The position numbers and the translations under genes were made by a program. Below are positions 6,001-52,056 of a DNA stretch of 64,000 nt, piece by piece; the first letter of the stretch is position 1, and every line of letters starts with the position of its first letter. The notes beneath the pieces are model-generated. The model worked only from the letters and a program-made list of their open reading frames with translations, ran no database searches and had not been told where the DNA came from. Source of the DNA: Aureococcus anophagefferens (lineage: Eukaryota; Sar; Pelagophyceae; Pelagomonadales; Pelagomonadaceae); assembly GCF_000186865.1 (NCBI RefSeq), contig NW_008705565.1:959839-1023838 (forward strand), in the 5' to 3' direction.

Positions 6001-9000
6001 CGTCGGAGCTGCTGCGCCAGCTCGTCGACGACGGCACGTGGACCGCGGGCGAGCTGAGCCCCATGGCGCTCGACGACTCGGAGACGCGGCCGGGCGACGT
6101 CGTCGAGGTCGAGGACGTGGGGATCTTGGCCACGGCCACCGACGGCAAGGCGCTCGACCGCGTCTGGGCGAACGCGGCGGACCGCGACGGCTGCTGCCTG
6201 GACCGCGTGGCGCCGCGGCTGCTGCGCCACTTCGCCGTCGTGCGCGTGGAGGACGCCGACGCGAACGCGCTGTCGACGGCCTTCGCGTCCATACTCAGAG
6301 ACCACGTCGGCGGCGCGGGTTTAGGCGGGCGGTCCGTGCCCATCATCGGCAAGGCGACGACGCGCCTCGTCAACGCCTGCGCGGCGGCGGCGCGCAACGA
6401 CCTCATGGCGCGCGCGTCGGCGACGACGCCCGTGACGGCCGCGGCGCCGCGCGCGCTGCTCCTCGCGGGCGCGCTCGCGTACGGCCGCGCGGACGTCGTC
6501 CGGGTGCTGCAGGGCTTTCTAGGCGCCCAGCCGGAGGACCTGGGCAACGACGCCGCGGCCATGACGCGGCTCTGGGCCCACGAGGCGCGGCGCACGCTCG
6601 GCGACCGGCTGCCGGACCACGACGAGGGCCTGGACCGCCTGAAGTTCGAGGACCTCCTGAAGGACGCGGCCGCGGGCGCGTCCGGCTCGAACCCGTTGGG
6701 CGGCGACATGTGGGAGAACGTCGTCCCCCCGGACGAGGAGCTCGATTATGCCGACCTGCCGAGCGTGCGCCTCCTGGGCGACCGCAAGGACGACGACGGG
6801 AACACGGTCGCGACGGACGGCGCGCAGACGTTCGCGCCGGGCGGCCACCGCGACAGCGGCGTCTTCGACGGCGAGCTCGGCGCCGCGCCGGACAGGATCG
6901 AGGACGGCGTCGACGACATCGGCAAGGACGAACACGCGGAGGAGCTCCCGGAGGAGGGCGAGGTCAGGAGCCGGCGCACGCAGGTCATGGACGACGCGAC
7001 GCACGAGCACAGCCACAGCGTCGACGTCGCGGACCACCACGACGACGAGGCCATGCGGAGCCACAAGACGCGGTCGACCGTGGGCGCCATCGTGACGCCG
7101 TCGCCCGAGCGCGTCGCCTACGCGCGCCTCGAGGGCGGCGACCGCGCGCGGCGCCAGCTCGTGCGCGAGGCGCGGTCCGTCGAGGCCGCGTTCGCGATCA
7201 CGCAGTCCATGGTGCCCCCGGCGCTCTTCGAGACGGGCGTCGTCGACGTGTTGCGGATTGCGAGGGCTTTACGGCGGGCCGCGGGCCACGTGGTCCTCCT
7301 GGGCCCCGGCGCGTCGGGGCGGCGCACGCTCGCGCGGCTCGCGGCGCGCGTCGTCGGCGGCGAGATCTCGCAGACGTCCGAGCTCATCTGCGGCCAGACG
7401 TTGAGCCGGGCGCGGGGCGGCGCGGGCATGGGGCCCAAGGACATGAACGGGTCCTTCTGCATCGCCCTGGCGCGGTTCCTCGGGCGGCTCGGCGAGGTCT
7501 GGCGGCCGCCCGCGCGCAAGGTCGACAACGCGGCCGAGGACCGCAAGGCCGTCGAGGCGCACAAGAAGTACGTCGAGGCCATGGCCGCCAAGGGCCAGTG
7601 GCTCGCGGACAAGTCCGGCGCGCCGGCGCCGGCGCCCATGATGCCCGAGAGCCCGCCGCCGCGGCCCGAGGCGCCCGCGGCGGACCTCTTCGCGCCGGAC
7701 CCCGAGCCGCCGCTCGCGCTTCTGTTAGTGTGCGACGACGAGCTCGGCGACGACGAGGCCGCCTGGCGCGCGCTGGGGTCGGCCATGAACAGCGGCGAGG
7801 CGCCCCTCTTCTTCGACACCAAGGTCGGCGACGGGGCAGCACAAGAGAGCGAAATTCCCAACTTCAAAGGCTCCTATCTCGGCCGTTTTCCACTCATTTT
7901 GGCTGATTTTTGGACGAGCGATCATCTCTCGGAACGGTCTCGCAGCGTGGGCGCTTTTTCCGGAATGCGCGCGCGCGGAACACTCACGTTGAAGCGACGT
8001 TGAATCACCCTTGTGCTGCCCAGGTCGGCGATTCGAAGATGCACGAGTTCGCCGCGGAGGACCGCGCCGCGCGCCTCGGCGGCGGCGGCGACGAGCTCTT
8101 CGACGAGGTCGCCGGCGAGATCACCGACGCCGCCGCCGAGGCGGAGAAGACGGCGCTGGAGGCGTCGCGGACGCGCCGCGGCGACGACGCGAGCGTCGGC
8201 AGCCAGTCGGGCACGTCCGTCGCGTCGTTCAACGAGGCCAAGGCCAAGCGGCTGCTCCAGGAGGCGGTCCAGGGCACGGGCGGGCCCAAGGCGCCCGTCC
8301 GCGCCCTGACGCTGCTGGCGCGGTCCGAGCGCGTGCGCAAGCGCCTGCGCGTCATTTTATGCGCGACGGTCGCGGACCCGGCCGCGTCCGCGGGCTCAGG
8401 CGCGGACGCGCACCACCGCCTCGCGCGCGTCGTGTTGCGGGAGCCGCGCTGCTTCGGGTCCGCGACCTGCGTCATCCGCATCTCGCCCTGGACGCGCGAC
8501 GCCTACCTGGCCATCGCGCGCGCGGCCTTTGCGGGCTGGCTCTCCGCGGAGGACGAGGTCGACGTCAAGCAGGACGAGGACAACGAGCACGCGGAGTCGG
8601 ACCGCGAGGAGGTCGAGCTGCGGAAAGTGCTGTGCTTCGCCTCCGCCGACGCCGCCGTCGACTTCCACCAGGCCGCCGCGCGCGAGTACGCGGCGCTCGC
8701 GCGCGCGACGGGCGGCGCGGCGTTCGTGGCCACGCCCGCGACGTTCGTCGCGTTCGTCCGCGACGCGGCCAAGGCGCGGCGGCGCCAGCTGTCCGAGACG
8801 ACGCAGCGCCTGGACCGGCTGAAGCGGTCGCTGACGACCTGGCGCGCCGCGCGCGTCGCCGCCGCGGAGCTCAAGAAGCTCACGGGCGGCGCCGCGGACA
8901 CCGCGGAGCGGGAGAAGGCCAACTTCGCGAAAGCGAAAGCGGAGCGCGAGTCCATGGAGGACCGCGCCGACGAGCTCCAGGGCCAGCTCCAGCAGGCGCT

Positions 9001-12000
9001 CAAAGACGGCGACACCGACGGCATCGACCGCATCAAGGCCGAGCTCGGCGCGCAGTCGAAGCGCATGGACGACCTCGACGCGGCCGCGAAGCAGGCCAAG
9101 GAGACCGCGCGGCAGCAGCAGGAGGGCGGCGGCGTCGCCCAGGCGCGCTGCGCCGCCGCGGAGGCGTTGGCGAACGCCTGCGCCGCCGACGCCATCCGCT
9201 GGAGCGACGAGGAGGCGAAGCTCAAGGCGCAGCGCGCGTCGTCCGCGCGGCACGCGCTCCTCGCGGCCGCGGCGGCCAACTACTGCGCGCAGCTGCCGCG
9301 GCCGCGGCGCGCGACGCTCTGGAAGCATTGGTTGGATGCCTTGGACGAGGCCCTCGTGGAATACCCGGAAGCTTTGGAGCTGAGCCAGCACGCCGCGGAG
9401 GACGACGGCGGCGAGGGCGCGGCGGATTTAGTGGAAGAATTCGCGATGCGCGAGCCGCCGACGCTCAACGAGTCGGAGCTCGCGGAGCAGGACGAGAAGG
9501 CGCTCTTCGTGTTGTCGCGGTCCCACCTGTCCGTGCTCGAGTGGCGCCTCGCGGGGCTCCGCGCGGACGCGCCGGGCTCCGGCGTCAACGCGGCCGCGAT
9601 GATGCTCGGCCGCCGCTGGCCGCTTTTAGTGGACCCGGAGCGCGTCGCGCGGCGCTTTATACTCAGGGCGGGCCGCGTCACGGCGTCGCGGCGCGGCAAG
9701 CGGCCCCAGGACGACGCGCGGCGGCCGGACGCGGGCGTCGTCGCCGCGCGGCTCCGCCACCGCCGCTTCACGGCGGCCTTCGAGGAGTCGGTGCGCACGG
9801 GCACGTGGCTCATCATCGAGGGCCTGGGCGAGCCGACGGAGAGCGACCCGCGGCTCACGGAGAGCGACCGCCTCGAGCTCCACGGCGCGGCGCTGCCGAG
9901 CCGCGACGACGGCTGGGCTTTGCCGCCCGAGGTCGCGTACGCGGTCGCCGCGGGCCGGTCCTTGGTGGAGCGCGGGGCCCACGCGGCGCTCGCCACGGTC
10001 CCGCTCCTCGGCGAGCCCGTGCCCGTGCCCGTGGACGGCAACTTCCGCGTGTTTTTATCGACGGACGTCACGGACTGCTCGAAGATCCCCACGCGGCTGC
10101 ACGGCGTCTGCGCGGTCGTCGACGCGCGGTGCTCCGCGTCCGCCGCGGGCGCCGAGGACGCCGCGGCCCACCTCCTGTGGGACGTGCTCGTGCCGTCGGA
10201 GCTCCCGCAGGTCGCGCGGTCCATCGCGCGGCTCGCGGGGAACGGGGCAGCACAAGAGAGCGAACTTCCCAACTTCAAAGGCTCCGATCTCGGCCGTTTT
10301 CCACTCGTTTCGGCTGATTTTTGGACGAGCGATCATCTCTCGGAACGATCTCGAAGCACGAATGCTATTTCGGGAACGCGCGCGCGCGGCACACTCACGT
10401 TGAAGCGACGTTGAATCACTCTTTTGCCGCCCAGGCGGGGAAGCGCGCGGCGCACACGCGGCAGTGCATCACGAAGGAGAACACGCTCTTCTGCGTGCTC
10501 ATCGCCTACGCGCCGCAGAAGGACGAGGAGCGCTTCGGCGGCGATTTGAGCGACGCGGCGACCTTCGCCATCAAGGACGAGCTGCGGAAGACCATGGGCG
10601 CGCCGCGGACGCCCGTGACGCTCGTCGCGAATCGCAAGGAGGCGCACCTCCTCGGCATCGCCGCGCGGGGCACGCGGGGGCTGGGCGTGTCCGCGGCGCT
10701 GCTCGACAACCGGGACCTCATCGCCATGGCGGAGCAGGCGAGCGCCGACGCGGCGACGAAGCGCCAGGAGCTGCGGGAACTGAACGCGAAGGACTTCGAG
10801 GGCCGCCGCGCGTGCGAGCCGCTCCGCGACGTCGCGAGCCACGCGACGACGCTCTTCGGCGCGCTCGCGGCCCTGGAGCAGGCGCGGGCCCAGGGCTGCT
10901 ACCACGTGGGCCTCGGCGCCTTCGCGCGGCGCCTCCGGCGCGTGTCCAAGGAGATGCGCGAGCCGAAGCGGCTGCCTCCGCAGCCGCGGCCGCGCGACGT
11001 CGAGGCCGAGGGGCCGGACCCGGACACGCAGGCGCGCGTCAAGGCGCTCAAGGCGGCCATGTCCCTCGGCGCCTACGACCAGTCGAAGCGCTCCATCTTC
11101 TCCCAGGACCACCTCGTGCTCGGCGTGCACCTCGTCGTCGCGTTGCGGCGCGACAAGCAGGGCAAGGCCGTGCGCAACACGCTCGACGACGGCGACACGG
11201 CGACCGTCGGCGACGCGTTAACGGTCGAGGGCGACGCGACGCTGTCGCCGCGGTCCCAGGACAGCGGCGCGCGCGAGAGCGGCGACGACGACGACGAGGG
11301 CTCCGTCGGCACGAAGTCGACGTGGCGCAAGCGGCTCCCCTGGAAGTGGGACGAGGACGAGTGGCGCTACGTCGTCACGGGCGAGACGCCGTCGACGGCG
11401 GACCCCATGGAGAGCGCCTGGGTCGGCTTCGCGGACAAGCGCGGCGACAAGGGCGCGGCGAAGTCGCGCAAGGACGAGGCGCGGCGGCGGACGCGCATGT
11501 CCGTCGCGAACCGGGGCCAGGACGCCGGCGCCGGGTCGTCGGCGAACCTGGGCGCGACGGGCGCCGCGGAGGTGGGCTGGTGGGTCTTCTCCGGGGATTT
11601 AAGGGAGCGCGCGAACGACGCGTCCACGCTGCCGGCGCTGGAGGAGCTGCCCGACTCCCTCGAGAGCGCGTCGAGCTTGCTCGAGTGGAACCGGGTCATC
11701 GAGTCCAAGTTCCCCCACAAGGAGGACTTCCCGCCGGCGTTCCGCGAGCTGACGCCGCTCCAGCGGCTCTGCGTGATCCGCGCGCTCCGCTTCGACGCGC
11801 TCACGGTGGCCCTGCGGGACTTCGTGAACGAGGAGCTGCGGGGCCACGACGCGGCGGTGACGCAGATCGCGGGCGACCGGGGGAGGTTGGCCCTCGAGGA
11901 CGCGCACGAGGACGCGGCGCCGAACGACGGCGACCGCGACTTCGACAAGCTCGCGGGCAGCGGCGACGTGCCGCCGCCGATCCTGCTCAACCTCGCGGCG

Positions 12001-14003
12001 GACGCGTCGGACCCGGCGGAGACGCTCCAGGCCATGGCGAAGAGCGCGGGCGTGGCGCTCATCTCCGCGGGCGCGAACGGCGTCGACGCGGCCGCGGCGC
12101 TGCGGCTGATCTCGAACTGCGCCGCGGACGGCAGCTGGGTCCTGCTCCAGCAGTGCGAGCTCGCGGGCGCCGACTTTCTGCGCCAGCTCGCCTGGCACGT
12201 CTGCGACCAGCCGTCCGTGGGGCGGGGCATCGGCGGGCGCTGCGAGGACACGGCGCCGACGTTCCGGCTCTGGCTCACGGCGCGCCTGCCGGGCGGCGGC
12301 GCCGCGAAGCGCGACTCGCTCGCGGCGCTGTGCCTGCGGGCGCCCTTCGCCGACGGGACGCTGCGGCTGCCCGGGGCGCTGGCGAGAGAAGCGATCACGG
12401 TCGTCGTCGAGCCGCCGCGCGGCTGCCGCGGCGCGATCGCCGTCGCGTCGGAATCGGGTTTTCTGGACCGCGAGGCGCTGGGCGGGAGCGACGGCAACCG
12501 GGCGCGCCTGTTCCTGAAATGCGTTTTGGCCTTTGGGATCATCCAGGAGCGGCGCGCGCGGCTCGGCGCGCTCGGCTGGGTCGGCGGCGGCGGCCCGCGG
12601 CCCGCGCCCGGGTCCGTCGACGAGCTGCGGGCCGCCGCGTTCCACTTCGCGGCGGTCTGGCCCTTCACGGGCTTCGCGCCCAAGGCCGTCGTCGTCGTGC
12701 CCAAGGGCGGCAAGAAGCAAAGGGGGAGCCTGCTCAAGGCCGCGGGCCGCGTCGCGCGCGAGACGCGCGGGGGGCCCGGCGGCGGCGGCGCGCTCGCGGC
12801 CGTCGGTCTCGGCGGGCCCGCGGCGAACCCGCATCTGGCCGCGCTCGCGGACTGCGTCGCCGGCCCGGCCGTCGCCGGAAGCTCCGTGGCGGGCAACGAG
12901 GGCGACGCGCGCGTCTTCGCGGCCGTCGTCCGCGCGCAGCTTTTGGGCGACGGCGGCTACGAGCCTAGGAAGCCCTTGTTCGCCCTGCCGCCGGGCACGA
13001 CGGACGTGCGCTGCCGCGAGTGGAAGACGCCCGAGGACCGCACGGGGCCCGGGCGGCCGCCGGACCGGTGCGCGGCGCGCGTCTTCGCGGCGGCCGCCGC
13101 GGTCGTGCCCGACGCGCTCGAGGGCGACGCCGTCGGCGGCAACGCGGCGATGAAGGTCGTGTCCAACGCTCTGGTGGCCGAGGACGTCTGCACGGCCATC
13201 GCGCGCCTCGAGGAGATCCTGGGCAACGCGGGCGCGGACGCGCTCCTGCTCAACGACACGCGGCTCGCGGCGATCTTGGACGAGCTCGAGGAGACGGTCG
13301 GCCGCGACTTCGGGTCCTGGTTGGACGCGGGGCACCACCGCGTGCGCGAGGACATGAAGGCGCTGACGGACGCGCGGCGGCGGCGGGACTACGACGCCGC
13401 GCTGGCCTACGCGCGGCGCACCAAAACCAAGAAGCCGCCGCCGCCGGAGTACGGCACGCCGCTCGACGACTGCTCGCCCTGGGACGTCATTTTGTTAAAC
13501 GAGCGCCAGCTGCTCCGGCGGACGCTCGTGCGGGCGACGCGCGACGTCGCCGACGTGCGCGCGGCGCTGGCCGGCGTCGTCGTCCCCGGCGCGGACCGCG
13601 GCCGCCTGGGGGCCGTCGTCGGCGACCTGCGCGCGCTGAGCATCCCCGAGGCCTGGCGCGCCATGTCGGCGACGGTCTTGGTCGCCGACATCCAGGGCTG
13701 GCTCCGGGAGATGCAGCAGCGCTGCGCGACCTTCGACGCGTGGCTCGAGAACTGCGACCCGCCGGCGCCCTTGCACCTGCCGCACGTCGCGCGGCCGCGG
13801 CAGCTGTTCCTCGCGACGCGGAAGCGCGCGGCGGCGCTCTGGACGCTGCCCCTCGACGACGTCTGGCTCGACTCTTACGTGCCCCGGGACGGCGAGGACG
13901 CTGACTCCTTCGCCATCGACGAGGAGGAGCTCAACGCGCAGTTCGTGTCCTTCGAGGACGGCGACGGCGAGGTGCAGACCGCCGAGGCCGACGACGGCGA
14001 CGG

Positions 14004-14042
<39 letters not shown>

Positions 14043-14607
14043 GGGCGAATCGGGGCCGTCGCGGCCGCAGACCGCGGGCAGCGGCGCGGAGAAGAACAAG
14101 AGCGACAAGGGGTCGCGGCCGTCGACGGCGGCGGACACGACGCGGCCGTCGACGGCGGCGGAGCCCATGCCCCTCGAGAAGGCCAATTTGACGCTGCACG
14201 TCGCGGGCGTCGTCCTCGAGGGCGCGCGCTGGGACGCGGACGCGCGGGGCCTCGCGGACGTCGACCGGCCGGACCAGCCCTTCTCGAAGCTGCCGCCCTT
14301 GGCCTTTGAGCCTCTCGCGGACGCGAGCTTCTCCGACGTCGACGACGCGCCGTTGCGCCAGTTCCGGCCGGGCGTCTACCGCTGCCCCATCTACGCGACG
14401 ACGCTCCGGTCGCGGCAGCCCCTCTTCTGGGTCTACCTCGACTCGAAGCGGCCGTCGACGCCGCGCGCGCTCCTCCCGAGCGAGGCCGTCACGCGCCAGG
14501 AGCGCGCCGCGACGCACATCCTCGACCAGGAATTCTGGACCCTGCGCGGCGTCGCCGCCGTGCTCGCCGTGCCCGAGGGCGCGAGCGCGCCCGCGGACTA
14601 CGACTAA
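1..14607 (+). CDS. Divergent dynein heavy chain (5' partial, three exons in window)
   Basis: Dynein heavy chains are AAA+ motors that move along microtubules. The frame is open from base 3 at the window edge, so the N-terminal tail is missing. Exons are 3-7823, 8024-10234 and 10435-14607 (about 4,734 residues here), joined across two introners. The linker is recognisable (ARRLSFARLFFIPERELLDL near 2010). AAA1 has a P-loop GPPGGGKS (about 3066), but the usual Walker B FDEFNR reads LDGLGA. AAA2 has GPPGVGKS (about 4320) and the family pattern VLDGPLHSSWADGL. AAA3 has lost its P-loop (about 5510). AAA4 has GPGASGRR (about 7297) and NSGE. AAA5 (9600-9860), AAA6 (LLQQCEL, about 12150) and the C-terminal domain follow. 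The stalk (8770-9260) is far too short to hold a microtubule-binding domain. Long acidic low-complexity inserts separate AAA3 from AAA4 and lie near the C-terminus. The family call is secure. Motor function is doubtful; a DNHD1-like structural role is one possibility. Confidence 0.9.
7824..8023 (+). mobile_element. Introner element 1: 200-nt phase-0 GT-AG intron in the dynein gene
   Basis: A 192-bp element (7832-8023) is flanked by a perfect 8-bp duplication, GTCGGCGA (7824-7831 and 8024-8031). Its ends are inverted repeats: left CGGGGCAGCACAAG, right CTTGTGCTGCCCAG. The intron starts at the GT of the left duplication and ends at the AG that closes the element. Removing 7824-8023 restores ...DTK|VGDSK... 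with no change to the reading frame. About 90% of the body matches two other copies in this window (10243 and 41907). This is the arrangement of DNA-transposon-derived introners, in which the element brings one splice site and the target duplication supplies the other. Confidence 0.93.
10235..10434 (+). mobile_element. Introner element 2: 200-nt phase-0 GC-AG intron in the dynein gene
   Basis: Second copy of the family, in the same orientation as copy 1. The target duplication is GCGGGGAA (10235-10242 and 10435-10442) and the element is 10243-10434. The left end is CGGGGCAGCACAAG; the right end has diverged to CTTTTGCCGCCCAG. Because the duplication begins with GC, the inferred intron is GC-AG. 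Splicing joins ...SIARL|AGKRA... in frame, consistent with the dynein AAA5-AAA6 region. No alternative GT donor nearby keeps the frame as neatly. Confidence 0.9.
13989..14043 (+). repeat. GAC/GGC trinucleotide tract coding poly-Asp in the dynein C-terminal domain
   Basis: A run of GAC codons broken by GGC encodes an Asp/Gly stretch. It is followed by a Ser/Pro/Thr-rich linker containing two near-identical RPSTAA segments. It sits inside the dynein C-terminal domain and looks like an expanded surface loop. Confidence 0.8.
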
Positions 14608-40824: not shown

Positions 40825-42542
40825 TTAGAGCTCCGAGGAGGGCAGGAGCGACGCGATGACGGCCTCGCACTTCGCGCGGCCGTCGGCGTCGCGGCCGCGG
40901 CACGCGGCCTCGCGCTCGTCGCGGAGGAAGTCGTCGAGGGGCACGGCGTAGGACGACGCCCAGTCGCGGTCGAAGGCGCTCTGGAGCGATGCCGTGAAGG
41001 CCGCGTCGCCCGTGTTGAAGGACGCGCCGGCCGTCTCGTACATGTAGCCCCACTGCCAGTTGGACGTGCCGACGTTCGCGCGCCGATCCGTGACGACGAC
41101 CTTGCCGTGGGCGACGCGCGTGTAGGCCGGGTAGGTGCCGTTGAGGCCCGGGCCGTACTTGGACGGGTAGGACGCCAGCGCGTCCCAGCCCGGCAGCGCG
41201 AAGAGCTTGACTTCCAACGTGCCGTTGCACGCGCTGTACTGGAACGCGCACGACCGCGCCGTGCGCCGGAGGCCCGCGAGGTAGGACAGCGACGCCGCGT
41301 CCGTGTTGGGCCACCAGGAGACGAGCAGCTTCGCGTCGACGCCGCGGGCGAAGACGGCCCGCGCCAGCGCGTCGGAGATGGCGGGCCACGAGAAGACGAC
41401 GCCTTTGGCCTCGCCTCGCTGCGCGTAGGCCGACGCGGGCGAAAAGTCCATGACCGCGAGCGACGCCGATGTCGCGGCGTCGTCGATGGTCGCCACGATG
41501 GCCGCTTCGTCGGTCATGCGGCCCGCGTCGCCGACGACCTCCGGAGGGGCGGCGGCGACGAAGACGTCCGGGAACCCCGACCTCTCGATGGGCCGCGTCA
41601 GGTTCCAGGGCGTGCCGAAGCGCGCGAGCGGGTCCGCCGCGCGCTCGCTTTCGGCCACGAGGGCGCTCCAGGCCGGCACGCGGCGGTCGTGGGCCACGCG
41701 CGGGTCGCGCGCGAGCCGCGTGTCGTTCTTCAGCGCCGCCATGGCCCAGAAGCCCTCGAAGAGCGCGCCGAGATCCTCGCCGACGGCGCCGTCCTCGACC
41801 AGCACGCCGAACTCCTTGACCTGCGCCAGCGACGCCCAGTCGAGGTTCGCGCTCCCGACGTAGGCCGACGCGCCGTCCGCGACCCAGAGCTTCATGTGCA
41901 TGATGCCTGGGCAGGAAAAAGGTGCGAAATTCTCAATTTCAAAGGCTCCTTTCTCGGCCGATTTTCACTCGTTTCGGCTGATTTTTGGACGAGCGATCAT
42001 CTCTCGGAGCGCTCTCGAAGCGTGGATGCTTTTTCTAGAACGCGCGCGCGCGAAACACTCACATTGAAGCGACGTTGAATCACCCTTTTCCTGCCCCGCA
42101 TGATGCCGCCGCCGTACCACGCGTCCGGGTCCCACTCGGCGTACGCGAATTTCGCCGGCGTCGCCCGCAGCGCGCGCACGAGGGAGCAGTTCGCCGTGCC
42201 GCCCATGGGCGACGCGAGCACGCGCACGGCGACGCCGCGCCGCTGGGCCGCGACGACGGCCTCGAACACGAGCCGTCCGCGGTCGACGCCGAGCGCCGTG
42301 AGGTCGCGCGAGAACGAGGACGCGTGGGGCGCGTCCGACTCCGCGAGCAGGTTCTCGTACATGAACGTGACGTCGAGCGTCTTCTTCGCCCCGTTGGCCA
42401 GGGCCACCTGGGCCTCCCAGGTGTTGACGGCGCCGGGCGTGAGCTGGATCTCGTCGAGGTCCAGCAGCGGGATCGTCTCCACCAAAGTCATCTTCGACGC
42501 CGCCGCGAGCGGGACGAGGAGCAGGAGGCGGACGGCCATCAT
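40825..42542 (-). CDS. Secreted PLD3-like phospholipase D family protein (two exons)
   Basis: PLD-family enzymes use two HKD motifs to cleave phosphodiesters; PLD3/PLD4-type members act on lipids or as lysosomal 5' exonucleases. Exons are 42107-42542 and 40825-41906, giving 505 residues. A signal peptide (MMAVRLLLLVPLAAASK) opens the protein. HKD1 is created across the splice: GGGIM|HMKLWVAD with GSANLDWASLAQVKEFGVLV, which is very PLD3-like. HKD2 is AHGKVVVTD with VGTSNWQWGYMYETAG. Both His, Lys and Asp sets are intact, so activity is expected. The intron is an introner whose removal restores the frame exactly in phase 1. Lipid or nucleic acid specificity cannot be told from sequence alone. 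The gene faces the PLC-like gene tail to tail. Confidence 0.92.
41907..42106 (-). mobile_element. Introner element 3: 200-nt phase-1 GC-AG intron in the PLD gene, reversed body
   Basis: Target duplication CATGATGC on the plus strand (41899-41906 and 42099-42106) flanks a 192-bp element (41907-42098). The ends are inverted repeats (CTGGGCAGGAAAAAGG and CCTTTTCCTGCCCCG). The body runs in the same plus-strand direction as copies 1 and 2, but the host gene is on the minus strand, so here it is spliced from its other strand. The terminal AG needed for splicing sits at the opposite end of the body compared with copies 1 and 2. The donor is GC, from the duplicated target. Confidence 0.92.
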
Positions 42543-45046: not shown

Positions 45047-47722
45047 TTACGCAACCCGCGGCCGCTTGCGTTTTCGCTCCCTCGTGAGCCCGGGGAGGGC
45101 CTCCTCGTCGTCGGCGCGCTCCCTGGTCACTTTGCGGCAGATGGGGCACGAGATCGTCGGCTTCCGCGGGCTCCGCCGCGCGGATGTCGCCTTGACCTCG
45201 AACCAGCGCGACGCGGCGTACTGCCGCAGGCACGCGGCGTGCATGTGGTGGCCGCACTCGAGCGCCGTCGCGTCGCCGAGGTCCTCCAAGCAGACCGGGC
45301 AGGCGAGCTGCGGCTCGTCCGCCTCCGCCGGGGACGTCCCGCGCGGGCCCCGGCGGACCAGGGCCTCGGGCACGTGCGACTCGACGTCGCCGTCGTCGTA
45401 CTTGACGGCGTAGGTCGGGCCGCGCCGGGACGTCCTCGAGGGCGCCGCGGACAGGACCGTGCCCGAATAGTAGCGCGAGCCGCCCTTCCAACGGGCCTCG
45501 ACGCGGTCTCCCGCCGCGAAGCGCAGCGCGGGCTGCTCCTCGTCCGATGCCGCGATCGCGGCCCCCGGCGAGTCGTCCACGCGCGGCGCGGACGCGGCGA
45601 GCCGGGGCGGCGCGCGCGGCCCGCGCGCGGCGCCGTCCGCGAGCGCGACCGTCGACGGCCGCGTGTTGACCGTCTGCTCGTCGCCGTCCCACAGAATCTT
45701 CCACCAGCCTTTCGTGCCCTTGCCCATGAGCGTGCCCTCCTTCGTGCCGTCCTTCTTGCGGAGCCGCGAGCCCACCTCGACGTGCTTGAAGGGCGAAAAC
45801 GGCTGCGGCGGCTCCGTCGCCACGGCGTCGAGCGACGACGGCCGCGCGGACGTCCATCGGTCGTCGCCGTCCCACTGAACTTTCCACCAGCCGCGCTTGC
45901 CCTTGTCCTGGAACGTGCACTCCCTCGTGCCGTCCTTTTCGCGGAACCGCGAGCCTTGCTCGACGAGTCGTCGAGCGAGGGCGCGGATGCTCTCGGACTC
46001 TGGCGGCGCGGAGTCGGGCGCGGGCTCGGGCGGCGCGGGCTCGGGCGGCGCGGGCTCGGGCGTGGGCGTGGGCTCGGGCGTCGGCTCGGGCGTCGCGGGC
46101 TCGGGCGTCGCGGGCTCGGGCATGGGCTCGGGCATGGGCTCGGGCGTGGGCGCGGGCGTCGGCGCGGGCGTCGCGGGCGCGGGCGTCGCGGGCTCGGGCG
46201 CGGGCTCGAAGGTGCCCATGTCCTCGAGGGTGACCATGTCCTCGATGGTGACCATGTCCGGCGCTCGCGCGAAACTCGGGAGTTCGGGAGTCGCGCGGGA
46301 CCCCATCACCATTCGCGCCTTCTTTCCGTGCGGCCGCGGGACCGGCAGCGACTCGTTCCACGCGTTGTAGTCGTCGACGAGCGCGGCGAGGCGGGCCCGG
46401 TCCTCGGCGGGCAGCGCGTCGAGGTTTTCGATGTCCTCGAGGGACGTCACGACCTTGGACTTCCGCGCGCACAGTCGAAACGCCTCGAACGCGCAGTCCA
46501 GATGGTACCACGTCGTCTTCTTGGACGAGCCGTGGCGGAGCGACGGCGGAATCTTGCCGAGGCGCGCGTCGCCGGGCCGGAGCTCGCAGCTCGCGCAGCC
46601 GCCGAACTGGCACCGGGACCGCGAGTCCTTGGTCACGGCCGCGACGAATCGGTTGTCGCCGAGGCGGCCGGCGCAGCGCCCGCCGATGCTGCCGAGCTGC
46701 GCCTGCGTCAGCTGGTCCCCCGCCGCGGCCTCCTCCTCATCATCGTCGTCGTGGCGGCGGCGGTGCTTTCTGGGTCTGGGGGGGGGAGGGTTGGATAAGA
46801 AGAGCTCGCACGCCTCGTACGACACCAGCGGAGCGTCGTCGTCGTCGTCGTCGTCCCCCCGGGACGGCCGCGTCTCCCGCGGCGCGTCCGTCGAGACCGT
46901 CCGCCGCGGAGGCCGGAGCGTCATCGTGCACGTCCTGACGAGCTCGCACGCCTCGGGCGCGCGATTCGGCTCCGGCGTCGTCGGCTCCGTCGCCGCGCGC
47001 TCCGCCGCCGCCCGCCGCGGCGCCGCGGCGGCCGGGGGCGCGCCTTCGGCCGGCGGTGCGGGCGCCGCGGCGGTCCCCCGGACGGCGGCGCCGCGAAGCT
47101 CGTCGAGGTTCGCGCCGTTGTAGGTCACCGCTTTCAGGCCCTTGCGGACGCTTTTCCCGATGACCGCCGTCGCGAAGGCCGTGGGGCTCGCGTAGGTCGC
47201 GGCGCCGTGGCGGATGGCCCCGCCGTCCAGCAGGTCCGCGACGACGTCGGGCCGCCGCGCCAGCGAGATGACGCCGGCGCCGGGCGCGACGAGGCCGCGG
47301 GCGACCATCTCGCCGAGGGTCAACGCCTTGGCCGCGCGCGCGCCCTTGCCGGGCTCCGGCGCTCCCGCGGCGGCGTCCGCGACGGGCGCTCCCGCGGCGT
47401 CCGCGACGGGCGCTTCCGCGGCGTCCGCGACCGGCGCTTCCGCGGCGGCGGCCGCCAGGGCATCGAGCGCCGCGCGCTCGGCGCCCTGCGCTCGCGTCCG
47501 CTCCGCGCTGACCCGAGCGAGCTGCTCTCGGAGCGAGGCGACCTCCGTGGCGAGGGATTGCTCGAGCGCCGCGTCCCGCTCGGCGGTGACCCCAGCGAGC
47601 TGCCCTCGGAGCGAGGCGACCTCCGCGGCGAGCCGCTGCGCCTCGGAATATGTCTCAATACCCACCCAGTACCAACAGGGCCATTCCCACCCGGGAAAGA
47701 GGGCCGGCGGCGCGTTGGCCAT
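45047..47722 (-). CDS. RAMA / PARP-type zinc finger / Tudor-like / RING-H2 protein
   Basis: An 891-residue multidomain protein, apparently a nuclear reader with E3 ubiquitin-ligase potential. In order: a short coiled coil (28-80) of two similar heptad blocks; a RAMA domain (about 134-210, LTLGEMVARGLVAPGAGVIS ... YASPTAFATAVIGKSV ... NLDELR), a module linked to modified-DNA recognition; an acidic/basic linker; a PARP-type zinc finger (C376, C379, H407, C410); a Pro/Glu/Thr repeat (506-572); two Tudor/Agenet-like repeats (589-630 and 649-690, each with KGWWK-type cores and WDGD); a third Tudor-like domain (735-790, RFAAGDRVEARW...VKYDDGD); and a complete RING-H2 finger (C808, C811, C823, H825, H828, C831, C859, C862). 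A Lys/Arg-rich end could be a nuclear signal. The start is the ATG at 47722 (MANAPPALF). Domain calls are by pattern; RAMA and RING are the most certain. Confidence 0.85.
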   Translation of the reverse strand: MANAPPALFPGWEWPCWYWVGIETYSEAQRLAAEVASLRGQLAGVTAERDAALEQSLATEVASLREQLARVSAERTRAQGAERAALDALAAAAAEAPVADAAEAPVADAAGAPVADAAAGAPEPGKGARAAKALTLGEMVARGLVAPGAGVISLARRPDVVADLLDGGAIRHGAATYASPTAFATAVIGKSVRKGLKAVTYNGANLDELRGAAVRGTAAAPAPPAEGAPPAAAAPRRAAAERAATEPTTPEPNRAPEACELVRTCTMTLRPPRRTVSTDAPRETRPSRGDDDDDDDAPLVSYEACELFLSNPPPPRPRKHRRRHDDDDEEEAAAGDQLTQAQLGSIGGRCAGRLGDNRFVAAVTKDSRSRCQFGGCASCELRPGDARLGKIPPSLRHGSSKKTTWYHLDCAFEAFRLCARKSKVVTSLEDIENLDALPAEDRARLAALVDDYNAWNESLPVPRPHGKKARMVMGSRATPELPSFARAPDMVTIEDMVTLEDMGTFEPAPEPATPAPATPAPTPAPTPEPMPEPMPEPATPEPATPEPTPEPTPTPEPAPPEPAPPEPAPDSAPPESESIRALARRLVEQGSRFREKDGTRECTFQDKGKRGWWKVQWDGDDRWTSARPSSLDAVATEPPQPFSPFKHVEVGSRLRKKDGTKEGTLMGKGTKGWWKILWDGDEQTVNTRPSTVALADGAARGPRAPPRLAASAPRVDDSPGAAIAASDEEQPALRFAAGDRVEARWKGGSRYYSGTVLSAAPSRTSRRGPTYAVKYDDGDVESHVPEALVRRGPRGTSPAEADEPQLACPVCLEDLGDATALECGHHMHAACLRQYAASRWFEVKATSARRSPRKPTISCPICRKVTRERADDEEALPGLTRERKRKRPRVA
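46012..46210 (-). repeat. Coding minisatellite encoding Pro-Glu-Pro/Ala-Thr repeats
   Basis: Short tandem variants of GGGCTCGGGCG and GGGCGTCGGC encode PEPATPEPTPEPTP-like sequence between the PARP-type finger and the Tudor-like repeats. It is probably a length-variable linker. Confidence 0.75.
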
Positions 47723-50730: not shown

Positions 50731-52056
50731 ATGAAGAACCTGGATGTGGAAGGCGGCGGCGCGACGATGCGAAAGAAACCCGAGACTGGCCCGAGCCTGC
50801 GGGGCTTCCTCATCGCCTTTGTCGTAGTAGCTGCCCTGGTGGGCTCCATCGCTGCCGTCGTCAAGCAGTACGACGAGGGCCACGGCAGCAGCCGGGACGA
50901 CGCGCTCTCGACGTACCAGGTCGCTTCCATCGGCGCCTATCCGGGTTACACCGGCGACATCGCGGTCTCGGGCGTCGTCGTCGTCTCCGAGACGGACGAC
51001 GACGGCATCACGATGATGGGCACGCTGACGGGCCTCGAGGCGTCCGTCACCGGCGGCTACCACATCCACAGCGGCACGACCTGCGCGAGCGCCGACGACG
51101 TCGGGGGTCACTACTACGAGGGCATGGCGACGGATCCGTGGACGACGAACTACGAGAGCGACTCCGTGGGCGTGTCGCAGACAAGCCTCTCGCTCGACGA
51201 CTTCACCCTGCACGGCGCCTACCCCGTCGCGGGCCGCGCCGTGGTGATCCACGCCGCAGACGGCACGCGCATCGGCTGCGGCGTCCTGGAGGACGCGGTC
51301 TACGCCTCCATAGGGCCGTACCCGGGCTACGCGATGATGCAGAGCGCGACGCTGGGGCCCTACCCGGGCTACGACGGCGACCTCGCCGTGACGGGGTCCG
51401 TGATGGTCATGCAGACGGACGCGGGCATCGAGCTCACGGGCACGCTCGGCGGGCTCGAGGCCTCGGCGACGGGCGGCTTCCACATCCACTCCGGCACGAC
51501 CTGCGCGAGCGCCGACGACGTCGGGGGCCACTACTACGAGGGCATGGACGCGGATCCGTGGACGACGAACTACGACAGCGACGCCTCGGGGGACGCGTCC
51601 GTGTCCCTCGCGCTCGACAGCTTCACGATCTCCGGCGCCTACCCCGTCGCGGGCCGCGCCGTCGTCGTCCACGCCGAGGACGGCACGCGGATCGCCTGCG
51701 GCCTCCTCGCCGTCATCTCGGGCCACGTCATGGTCGCCCAGGCCGGCGACGACATCGCCGTGTCCGTCGCCATCGCCGACGGGCCCCTCGGTCCCGCCGC
51801 GGGCGGCGCGCACGTGCACAGCGGCGAGACGTGCGCCGACGCGGACGCCGTCGGCGGCCACTACTACGAAGGCATGAGCTCGGACCCCTGGACGACGACC
51901 TACGACGCCTACGACTCGACGACCGCCGGCGCCGCGACCTTCGACGTCGCCGGCGGCTTCACGCTGGACGGCGACTACCCCGTCGAGGGCCGCGCGTTCG
52001 TCATCCACAACGAGGCCGGCACGCGCGTGGGCTGCGGCCTCCTCTCCACCGTCTGA
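50731..52056 (+). CDS. Membrane-anchored triple Cu-only SOD-like repeat protein
   Basis: A 441-residue type II membrane protein: a short basic N-terminus, one transmembrane helix (about 24-45, RGFLIAFVVVAALVGSIAAV), then three SOD_Cu-like repeats. Each repeat keeps the copper ligands: HIH or HVH (GFHIHSGTTC), the bridging-type His (GGHYYEG) and the last His (RAVVIHAADG, RAVVVHAEDG, RAFVIHNEAG), plus the disulfide pair (TC ... GCG or ACG). The zinc loop with its His/His/Asp ligands is missing, being replaced by a short DPWTTNYDSD-type segment. This is the layout of copper-only SOD-repeat proteins. They may dismutate superoxide outside the cell or bind copper; which applies is unknown. The start is the ATG at 50731, since the longer frame begins with TTG. 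It lies 140 bp after the WLM gene on the same strand. Confidence 0.88.
   Translation: MKNLDVEGGGATMRKKPETGPSLRGFLIAFVVVAALVGSIAAVVKQYDEGHGSSRDDALSTYQVASIGAYPGYTGDIAVSGVVVVSETDDDGITMMGTLTGLEASVTGGYHIHSGTTCASADDVGGHYYEGMATDPWTTNYESDSVGVSQTSLSLDDFTLHGAYPVAGRAVVIHAADGTRIGCGVLEDAVYASIGPYPGYAMMQSATLGPYPGYDGDLAVTGSVMVMQTDAGIELTGTLGGLEASATGGFHIHSGTTCASADDVGGHYYEGMDADPWTTNYDSDASGDASVSLALDSFTISGAYPVAGRAVVVHAEDGTRIACGLLAVISGHVMVAQAGDDIAVSVAIADGPLGPAAGGAHVHSGETCADADAVGGHYYEGMSSDPWTTTYDAYDSTTAGAATFDVAGGFTLDGDYPVEGRAFVIHNEAGTRVGCGLLSTV

What the first reader, a model, noticed from the sequence alone, without database searches (positions are those of the whole stretch)
7824..8023. Introner family generating introns of exactly 200 nt
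Three dispersed copies (7824-8023, 10235-10434, 41907-42106) each equal 8 bp of duplicated target plus a 192-bp element with inverted terminal repeats. Each removal restores a known protein exactly. The donor comes from the duplicated target and the acceptor AG from the element end. This shows recent intron gain by a cut-and-paste-like element. Introners of this kind are known from some algae, including pelagophytes; whether this sequence family is described I cannot check.
Basis: partly seen in the sequence, partly recalled or inferred. Interest (0 to 1): 0.9.

Follow-up and report, generated by a model that had tools for sequence, protein, structure and literature searches.

The report
Transposon-made introns in a pelagophyte alga
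Three 200-base segments in this algal DNA are copies of a small jumping element that turns itself into a removable intron where it lands in a gene; such "introners" were already reported from what is most likely this same alga, but the copies show an unexpected rule linking their ends and orientation that is worth a follow-up.

Summary
Each segment is an 8-bp target duplication plus a 192-bp element with inverted ends. Removing copy 3 restores a phospholipase-D-like protein exactly; copies 1 and 2 interrupt a dynein heavy chain gene in frame. The genome is most likely Aureococcus anophagefferens; it holds 976 exact 3' body ends of this family (606 + 370). These are introners, already reported from that species (Huff 2016, not held; seen through passages of PMC10228655 and PMC7789003). 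Sharper points: (1) copy 3's body is reversed, so both orientations make introns; (2) in all 108 distinct resolved copies (15 hits unresolved) the sense 3' end is AG and the other end CA, CG, CC or AA, never CT, even where forward and reverse bodies are 99.4% identical; (3) of 62 copies drawn without regard to context, 59 were resolved and all 59 are sense to the better coding strand with GT or GC donors (24 and 35), whereas random insertion with purging only in genes predicts about 78% noncoding copies. No autonomous partner was found. Verdict: known kind, correctly read; the end/orientation rule is the interesting part.

The parts
7824..8023 (+). Introner copy 1 as an intron (200 nt, phase 0): TSD copy plus 192-bp element in forward (F) body orientation; donor GT, acceptor AG
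7824..7831 (+). TSD GTCGGCGA, first copy (holds the GT donor); second copy 8024-8031
7832..8023 (+). Element body 1, ends CGGGGCAG...CTGCCCAG
10235..10434 (+). Introner copy 2 as an intron (200 nt, phase 0), F body; GC donor
10235..10242 (+). TSD GCGGGGAA, first copy; second copy 10435-10442
41907..42106 (-). Introner copy 3 as an intron (200 nt, phase 1) in a PLD3/4-like gene; element body reversed (R) relative to the gene; GC donor, AG acceptor
42099..42106 (-). TSD GCATCATG (sense), donor-side copy; second copy 41899-41906
8024..10234 (+). Exon of the dynein heavy chain gene between copies 1 and 2 (Pfam AAA_9)
10435..14604 (+). Exon stretch of the same gene after copy 2 (Pfam Dynein_heavy, Dynein_C)

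Best explanation
A family of short non-autonomous DNA transposons (MITE-like introners) of a pelagophyte, most likely Aureococcus anophagefferens. Insertion duplicates 8 bp of target. If the target begins G-T or G-C on the coding strand, that becomes the 5' splice site; the element end supplies a pyrimidine-rich stretch and the AG, so the new intron (8 + about 192 nt) can be removed without changing the protein. Both inverted repeats carry much the same outward stretch (CTTNTNCTGCCC); the second base of the terminal repeat decides which end can serve as acceptor: CT at an end reads AG outward, CA, CG or CC does not. The body in between can lie either way. Shown: TSDs, ends, both orientations, coding-strand concordance, donor dinucleotides, copy numbers. 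Inferred: cut-and-paste mobilisation by an unseen transposase, splicing in vivo, and exchange between the two inverted repeats that flips the body and evens out repeat positions 9 and 11.
For: 606 F and 471 R acceptor-end matches genome-wide, reversed controls 0. 109 of 124 hits of 120 bp or more resolved with TSD at least 7/8 (108 distinct; L001 repeats window copy 1): each has exactly one CT end, and the better coding strand agrees with it in all. Donors in the 109: 57 GT, 52 GC, 0 other. Uninterrupted homologues P0001, P0003, P0004 and P0005 run across the copy 3 site. Literature on the species: PMC10228655 (passage), PMC7789003 (passages), PMC9481584 (passages: about 210 bp is the characteristic introner length in A. 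anophagefferens).
Against: No transposase-bearing relative with these ends was found; PF05699 and PF18758 rang in no control genome, so they say little. 15 of 124 hits were not resolved to a TSD of 7/8 with recognisable ends. The scarcity of noncoding copies is not what random DNA transposition with purging in genes predicts. PMC7789003 says that A. anophagefferens introners show canonical splicing motifs, whereas about half of the donors here are GC. No RNA evidence. Huff 2016 is not held, so identity with its family is not proven.
Confidence: 0.94

Rival explanations
1. The introns spread at the RNA level (reverse splicing or reverse transcription of spliced introns), which would place every copy sense in transcribed, spliceable sites; the 8-bp repeats would then need another cause.
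For: 59 of 59 resolved copies (62 targeted) that were drawn without regard to context agree with the better coding strand and have a GY donor; random sites do so in about 10%, and selection acting only in genes would leave about 78% of copies noncoding. Of 48 body-3' ends lacking AG on contigs C1 and C2, 47 have a CT end on the other side and the last (L115) has an altered end.
Against: The 8-bp duplications that form the 5' part of each intron differ between loci, so the mobile unit excludes the first 8 nt of the intron it came from; terminal inverted repeats; reverse-body copies.
Confidence: 0.1
2. Random DNA transposition, and natural selection alone leaves only spliceable copies.
For: All resolved copies are spliceable by sequence; PMC9860276 section 10 argues that negative selection purges poorly spliced introners.
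Against: Noncoding insertions should be close to neutral and dominate survivors; 26-29% of random positions scored noncoding. That label rests on a codon score trained on two exons of one gene of the window, and 6 of the 60 insertion sites also fell under its threshold.
Confidence: 0.25
3. Two separate element families of opposite orientation, each with its own fixed acceptor end, rather than bodies that flip.
For: F and R are clustered on the body tree: 13 changes against a mean of 28.6 (minimum 22) in 200 shuffles.
Against: F and R bodies up to 99.4% identical (L104, L101, L095, L090 against L031) with both terminal bases exchanged; 16 of 33 R copies have an F copy as nearest neighbour. The bodies are short (about 156 bases), so the number of switches is soft.
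Confidence: 0.15

Closest known systems
Introner elements of Aureococcus anophagefferens (Huff, Zilberman and Roy 2016, Nature; not held, known through other papers and recall)
   Same: Most likely the same species; direct repeats plus terminal inverted repeats of constant length (PMC7789003), insertion in both orientations with co-opted splice sites (PMC10228655), about 210 bp (PMC9481584).
   Different: Whether that paper describes this sequence family, the CT versus CA/CG end rule or the share of GC donors could not be checked; PMC7789003 calls the splicing motifs canonical.
Aureococcus sp. introner family 4 (TARA_AOS_82_MAG_00129; PMC9860276, Fig. 2F legend and methods passage)
   Same: 8-bp TSD, same genus.
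   Different: That family carries both splice sites and adds 12 nt to the mRNA; here only the acceptor is carried and nothing is added.
Symbiodinium microadriaticum introners (PMC9860276 Fig. 2B legend)
   Same: TSD plus TIR; [quoted passage not shown]
   Different: 4-bp TSD and an unrelated host.
hAT-superfamily MITEs (recalled)
   Same: 8-bp TSD; the non-acceptor end reads CAGGGCAG in 66 of 108 copies, like the hAT end CAGGG (recalled).
   Different: No hAT transposase was found (a weak test); the acceptor end reads CTGGGC in 105 of 108.

Membership tests
Introner (intron-generating element) | Many highly similar copies, each an intron at a different exon position | tested here: met
   606 + 471 acceptor-end matches; in 108 of 108 distinct resolved copies the better coding strand of the flanks agrees with the AG end, and 99 of 108 flanks score 0.1 or more
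Introner (intron-generating element) | Exact removal restores the protein | tested here: met
   Copy 3 against P0001, P0003, P0004, P0005; for copies 1 and 2 only the open frame was shown
Introner (intron-generating element) | Spliced in RNA | not testable with these tools
   No RNA reads; P0001 may come from a transcript or an empty site, its source type is not given
Non-autonomous DNA transposon (MITE) | TSD of constant length | tested here: met
   8 bp; 8/8 in 86 of 108 distinct resolved copies, at least 7/8 in the rest by the way they were chosen; 15 of 124 hits unresolved
Non-autonomous DNA transposon (MITE) | Terminal inverted repeats | tested here: met
   Ends of the form NNGGGCRG at both sides in 98 of 108 copies; repeat positions 9 and 11 match within elements in 83 and 74 of 98 against 49 and 50 expected
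Non-autonomous DNA transposon (MITE) | A cognate autonomous transposon | tested here: inconclusive
   Not found by end patterns that exclude the body nor by PF05699, PF10551, PF18758, PF12762; two of the four families rang in no control
hAT superfamily | 8-bp TSD and hAT-type transposase | tested here: inconclusive
   TSD met; transposase not seen in a search that also rang in no control
Introner family of Huff 2016 | Same sequence family in A. anophagefferens | not tested
   Paper not held

The most novel reading that the evidence does not exclude
In this family the splice polarity of an intron-making transposon is set by one terminal base pair and is independent of the body: the body flips between the two inverted repeats while the sense strand always ends in AG and never begins with CT, and new copies arise almost only at sites already spliceable (coding-sense, GT or GC at the right place). 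That would mean insertion, or survival of the intermediate, is coupled to transcription or splicing despite a DNA-transposon signature, and that inverted-repeat exchange continually re-orients introns.
Probability: 0.2. Interest if true: 0.75.

Novelty: already known. Interest (0 to 1): 0.42.

Why it matters
Introners are a leading explanation of mass intron gain. A contiguous genome with about a thousand young copies lets one ask how DNA insertion and splicing are linked. The sample here shows hardly any copy where it could not be spliced, GC donors used about as often as GT with no strong further donor consensus, and orientation and acceptor end that are separable. These points bear on the open question whether such elements are purely DNA transposons filtered by selection or are directed to spliceable sites.

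Tried and rejected
Autonomous partner: three end patterns that exclude the normal body gave 31, 8 and 0 matches (reversed controls 1, 22 and 1). All 31 and 3 of the 8 were fetched; most are other or degenerate copies of the same element, L059 shows no copy, and not every one was examined by eye; the other 5 of the 8 read like chance coding matches and were not fetched. Four transposase families gave nothing. Viral carriage: two patterns of this family and one of family B gave 0 in IMG/VR; exact patterns miss diverged copies. Two-family reading of F and R: weakened by near-identical F/R pairs. CT at the donor end: 0 of 108 against 5 with C at that base; too few to claim active avoidance. Terminal AG as part of a longer target duplication: rejected, since the two bases upstream of the donors of copies 2 and 3 are TC and CG. 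The first frame tried for the dynein gene was wrong and was replaced. A first table mixed both strands because copy 3 is reversed; replaced, where two rows with CT at both ends (L002, L045) are family B, not this family. Thirteen F/R changes were counted on a FastTree tree and again on a quick IQ-TREE tree.

Full report
Observation. The three segments are present as described. Each is an 8-bp target-site duplication (TSD) plus a 192-bp element, and the second TSD copy follows. Copies 1 and 2 lie in phase 0 in a dynein heavy chain gene: the joined exons stay open and the two exon stretches tested carry AAA_9, Dynein_heavy and Dynein_C matches, though no Pfam match crosses the junctions and exon 2 alone found no homologue. 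Copy 3 lies in phase 1 in a phospholipase D3/4-like gene on the minus strand. Its removal gives YGGGIMHMKLWVADG, with the HxK motif (name recalled); P0001 (98% identical over the whole query), P0003, P0004 and P0005 run straight across that point.

Organism. The genome is 49.05 Mb in 86 contigs and the window 65-75% G+C. P0006, named Aureococcus anophagefferens by its source, matches the window's protein in near-identical blocks broken by gene-model differences. The CCMP1851 assembly is 49.9 Mb and 70.5% G+C (PMC11237714, part 1 of the whole text).

Copy number. The forward acceptor end (GTTGAATCAC..CAG) has 606 exact matches, the same end without AG 370, the reverse acceptor end (TTTCGC..CAG) 471; all reversed controls are 0. 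The 976 body-3' ends are a lower bound on copies. A first look gave 1974 candidates, of which 40 were scored.

Anatomy of a sample. In 108 loci plus the window, 124 hits of at least 120 bp were found; 109 were resolved with a TSD of at least 7/8 and recognisable ends, 15 were not. One of the 109 (L001) repeats window copy 1, leaving 108: forward bodies 75, reverse 33. Intron length is exactly 200 in 61, 198-202 in 84, range 171-206. A codon score trained on two dynein exons of the window puts the coding strand on the side predicted by the AG end in 108 of 108, clearly in 106; 99 of 108 flanks score 0.1 or more. Donors in the 109: GT 57, GC 52. On the coding strand of the flanks GC dinucleotides are 3.4 times as common as GT (9841 against 2855), so GT is favoured about four-fold per site in the whole sample (about two-fold in the copies drawn without regard to context, 35 GC and 24 GT), yet GC is freely used. 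Positions +3 to +8 and the last exon base show no strong consensus. Most loci were drawn by patterns that require AG, so the presence of AG is by ascertainment there; strand, TSD, donor and the far end are not.

An ascertainment check. Body-3' ends lacking AG were listed without regard to the other end. On contigs C1 and C2 there are 48; 35 have an exact reverse acceptor end at the expected distance and the other 13 were fetched. Of the 13, 12 had a TSD of at least 7/8; 11 of these have a CT end and a GY donor, and in all 12 the better coding strand is the expected one. In L115 the end appears shifted by a small deletion and the TSD as called does not start with GY; in L118 no TSD of 7/8 was found, although a CTGGGCAG end is there. 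Among 60 exact reverse acceptor ends on C1 and C2, none has an exact AG forward end as partner. So copies with two AG ends, or clearly with none, were not seen.

End rule. In gene-sense orientation the acceptor-side repeat begins CTG in 108 of 108 (ascertained in most), and the donor-side repeat has A 68, G 35, C 5, T 0 at position 2. Forward and reverse bodies can be 99.4% identical while both terminal bases are exchanged (L104, L101, L095, L090 reverse against L031 forward). On the body tree F and R change at least 13 times, against 28.6 on average and at least 22 in 200 shuffles. So polarity is inherited for a while and then switches. Within elements, repeat positions 9 and 11 agree between the two ends in 83 and 74 of 98 well-formed cases against 49 and 50 expected if independent; positions 15 and 17 show no such excess. 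The simplest account is exchange between the two inverted repeats, inside position 2, which flips the body and evens out the repeats. This is inference.

Confinement to spliceable sites. 62 copies were drawn by end pattern without regard to context: 41 F and 21 R. 59 were resolved (misses: L044, L093, L094); in 59 of 59 the better coding strand agrees and the donor is GT or GC; 54 of 59 flanks score 0.1 or more. One search gives the same for 60, with one older copy added (L033). At random positions of the same loci or of the window the better strand agrees and the donor is GY in about 10% (7.4-7.5% if a score of 0.1 is also asked), and 26-29% score noncoding; if only genic insertions were purged, 78-79% of copies should be noncoding. 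Limits: the noncoding label depends on a small training set, and 6 of the 60 sites score under the same threshold. PMC9860276 reports enrichment of introners in genes in 161 of 175 genomes and discusses insertion bias and negative selection (sections 9 and 10).

A second family. A 203-bp element with CTGTGTGGAAATC ends, alike to the first in its core, is also common: 638 exact matches to its end pattern, 25 sequences aligned. Six of the seven rows called B are such elements (the seventh, L024, looks spurious); five of the six have CT at both ends, and the six occur with the body on either strand of the gene.

Comparison with the literature. Huff et al. 2016 is not held. PMC10228655 (one passage) says that paper reported insertion in both orientations with co-opted splice sites in M. 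pusilla and A. anophagefferens. PMC7789003 (passages) says the A. [quoted passage not shown] it also lists that alga among those with more non-canonical introns. PMC9481584 (passages) gives about 210 bp as their characteristic length. PMC9860276 (passages and sections 7-10) gives GC 5' splice sites at 0-50% per family and an Aureococcus sp. family with 8-bp TSD. Eight searches were seen as listings; no passage opened states the terminal-base rule. Most listed papers were not opened, and subscription papers and supplements were not searched, so its absence from print is not shown.

Verdict. The finding is correct and of a known kind, in all likelihood in the very species where it was described. 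The terminal-base rule, the independent flipping of the body and the near confinement to spliceable sites are the parts worth pursuing.

Noticed in passing
L002:383-515, L007:175-305, L045:2025-2142 and other loci: A second introner-like family (about 203 bp, TIR CTGTGTGGAAATC, 8-bp TSD, mostly AG at both ends) alike to the first in its core; 638 exact end-pattern matches genome-wide.
   Followed up: partly
resolved copies, e.g. window 10235-10236 and 42105-42106: GC donors are about as common as GT (52 of 109; 35 of 59 drawn without regard to context), with no strong consensus beyond +2, unusual for spliceosomal introns.
   Followed up: partly
L070:1498-1829: A composite or duplicated introner with a partly repeated inner segment, about 330 bp long; not resolved.
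   Followed up: no
L108 (C1:2490559 and C1:2490804): Two reverse introner acceptor ends only 245 bp apart.
   Followed up: no
window 50998-52043: Three long direct repeats (173 and 102 nt, spacing 420 and about 330), perhaps protein repeats.
   Followed up: no
window 45972-46214: Long G+C-rich tandem-like stretch (D2), perhaps low-complexity coding sequence.
   Followed up: no
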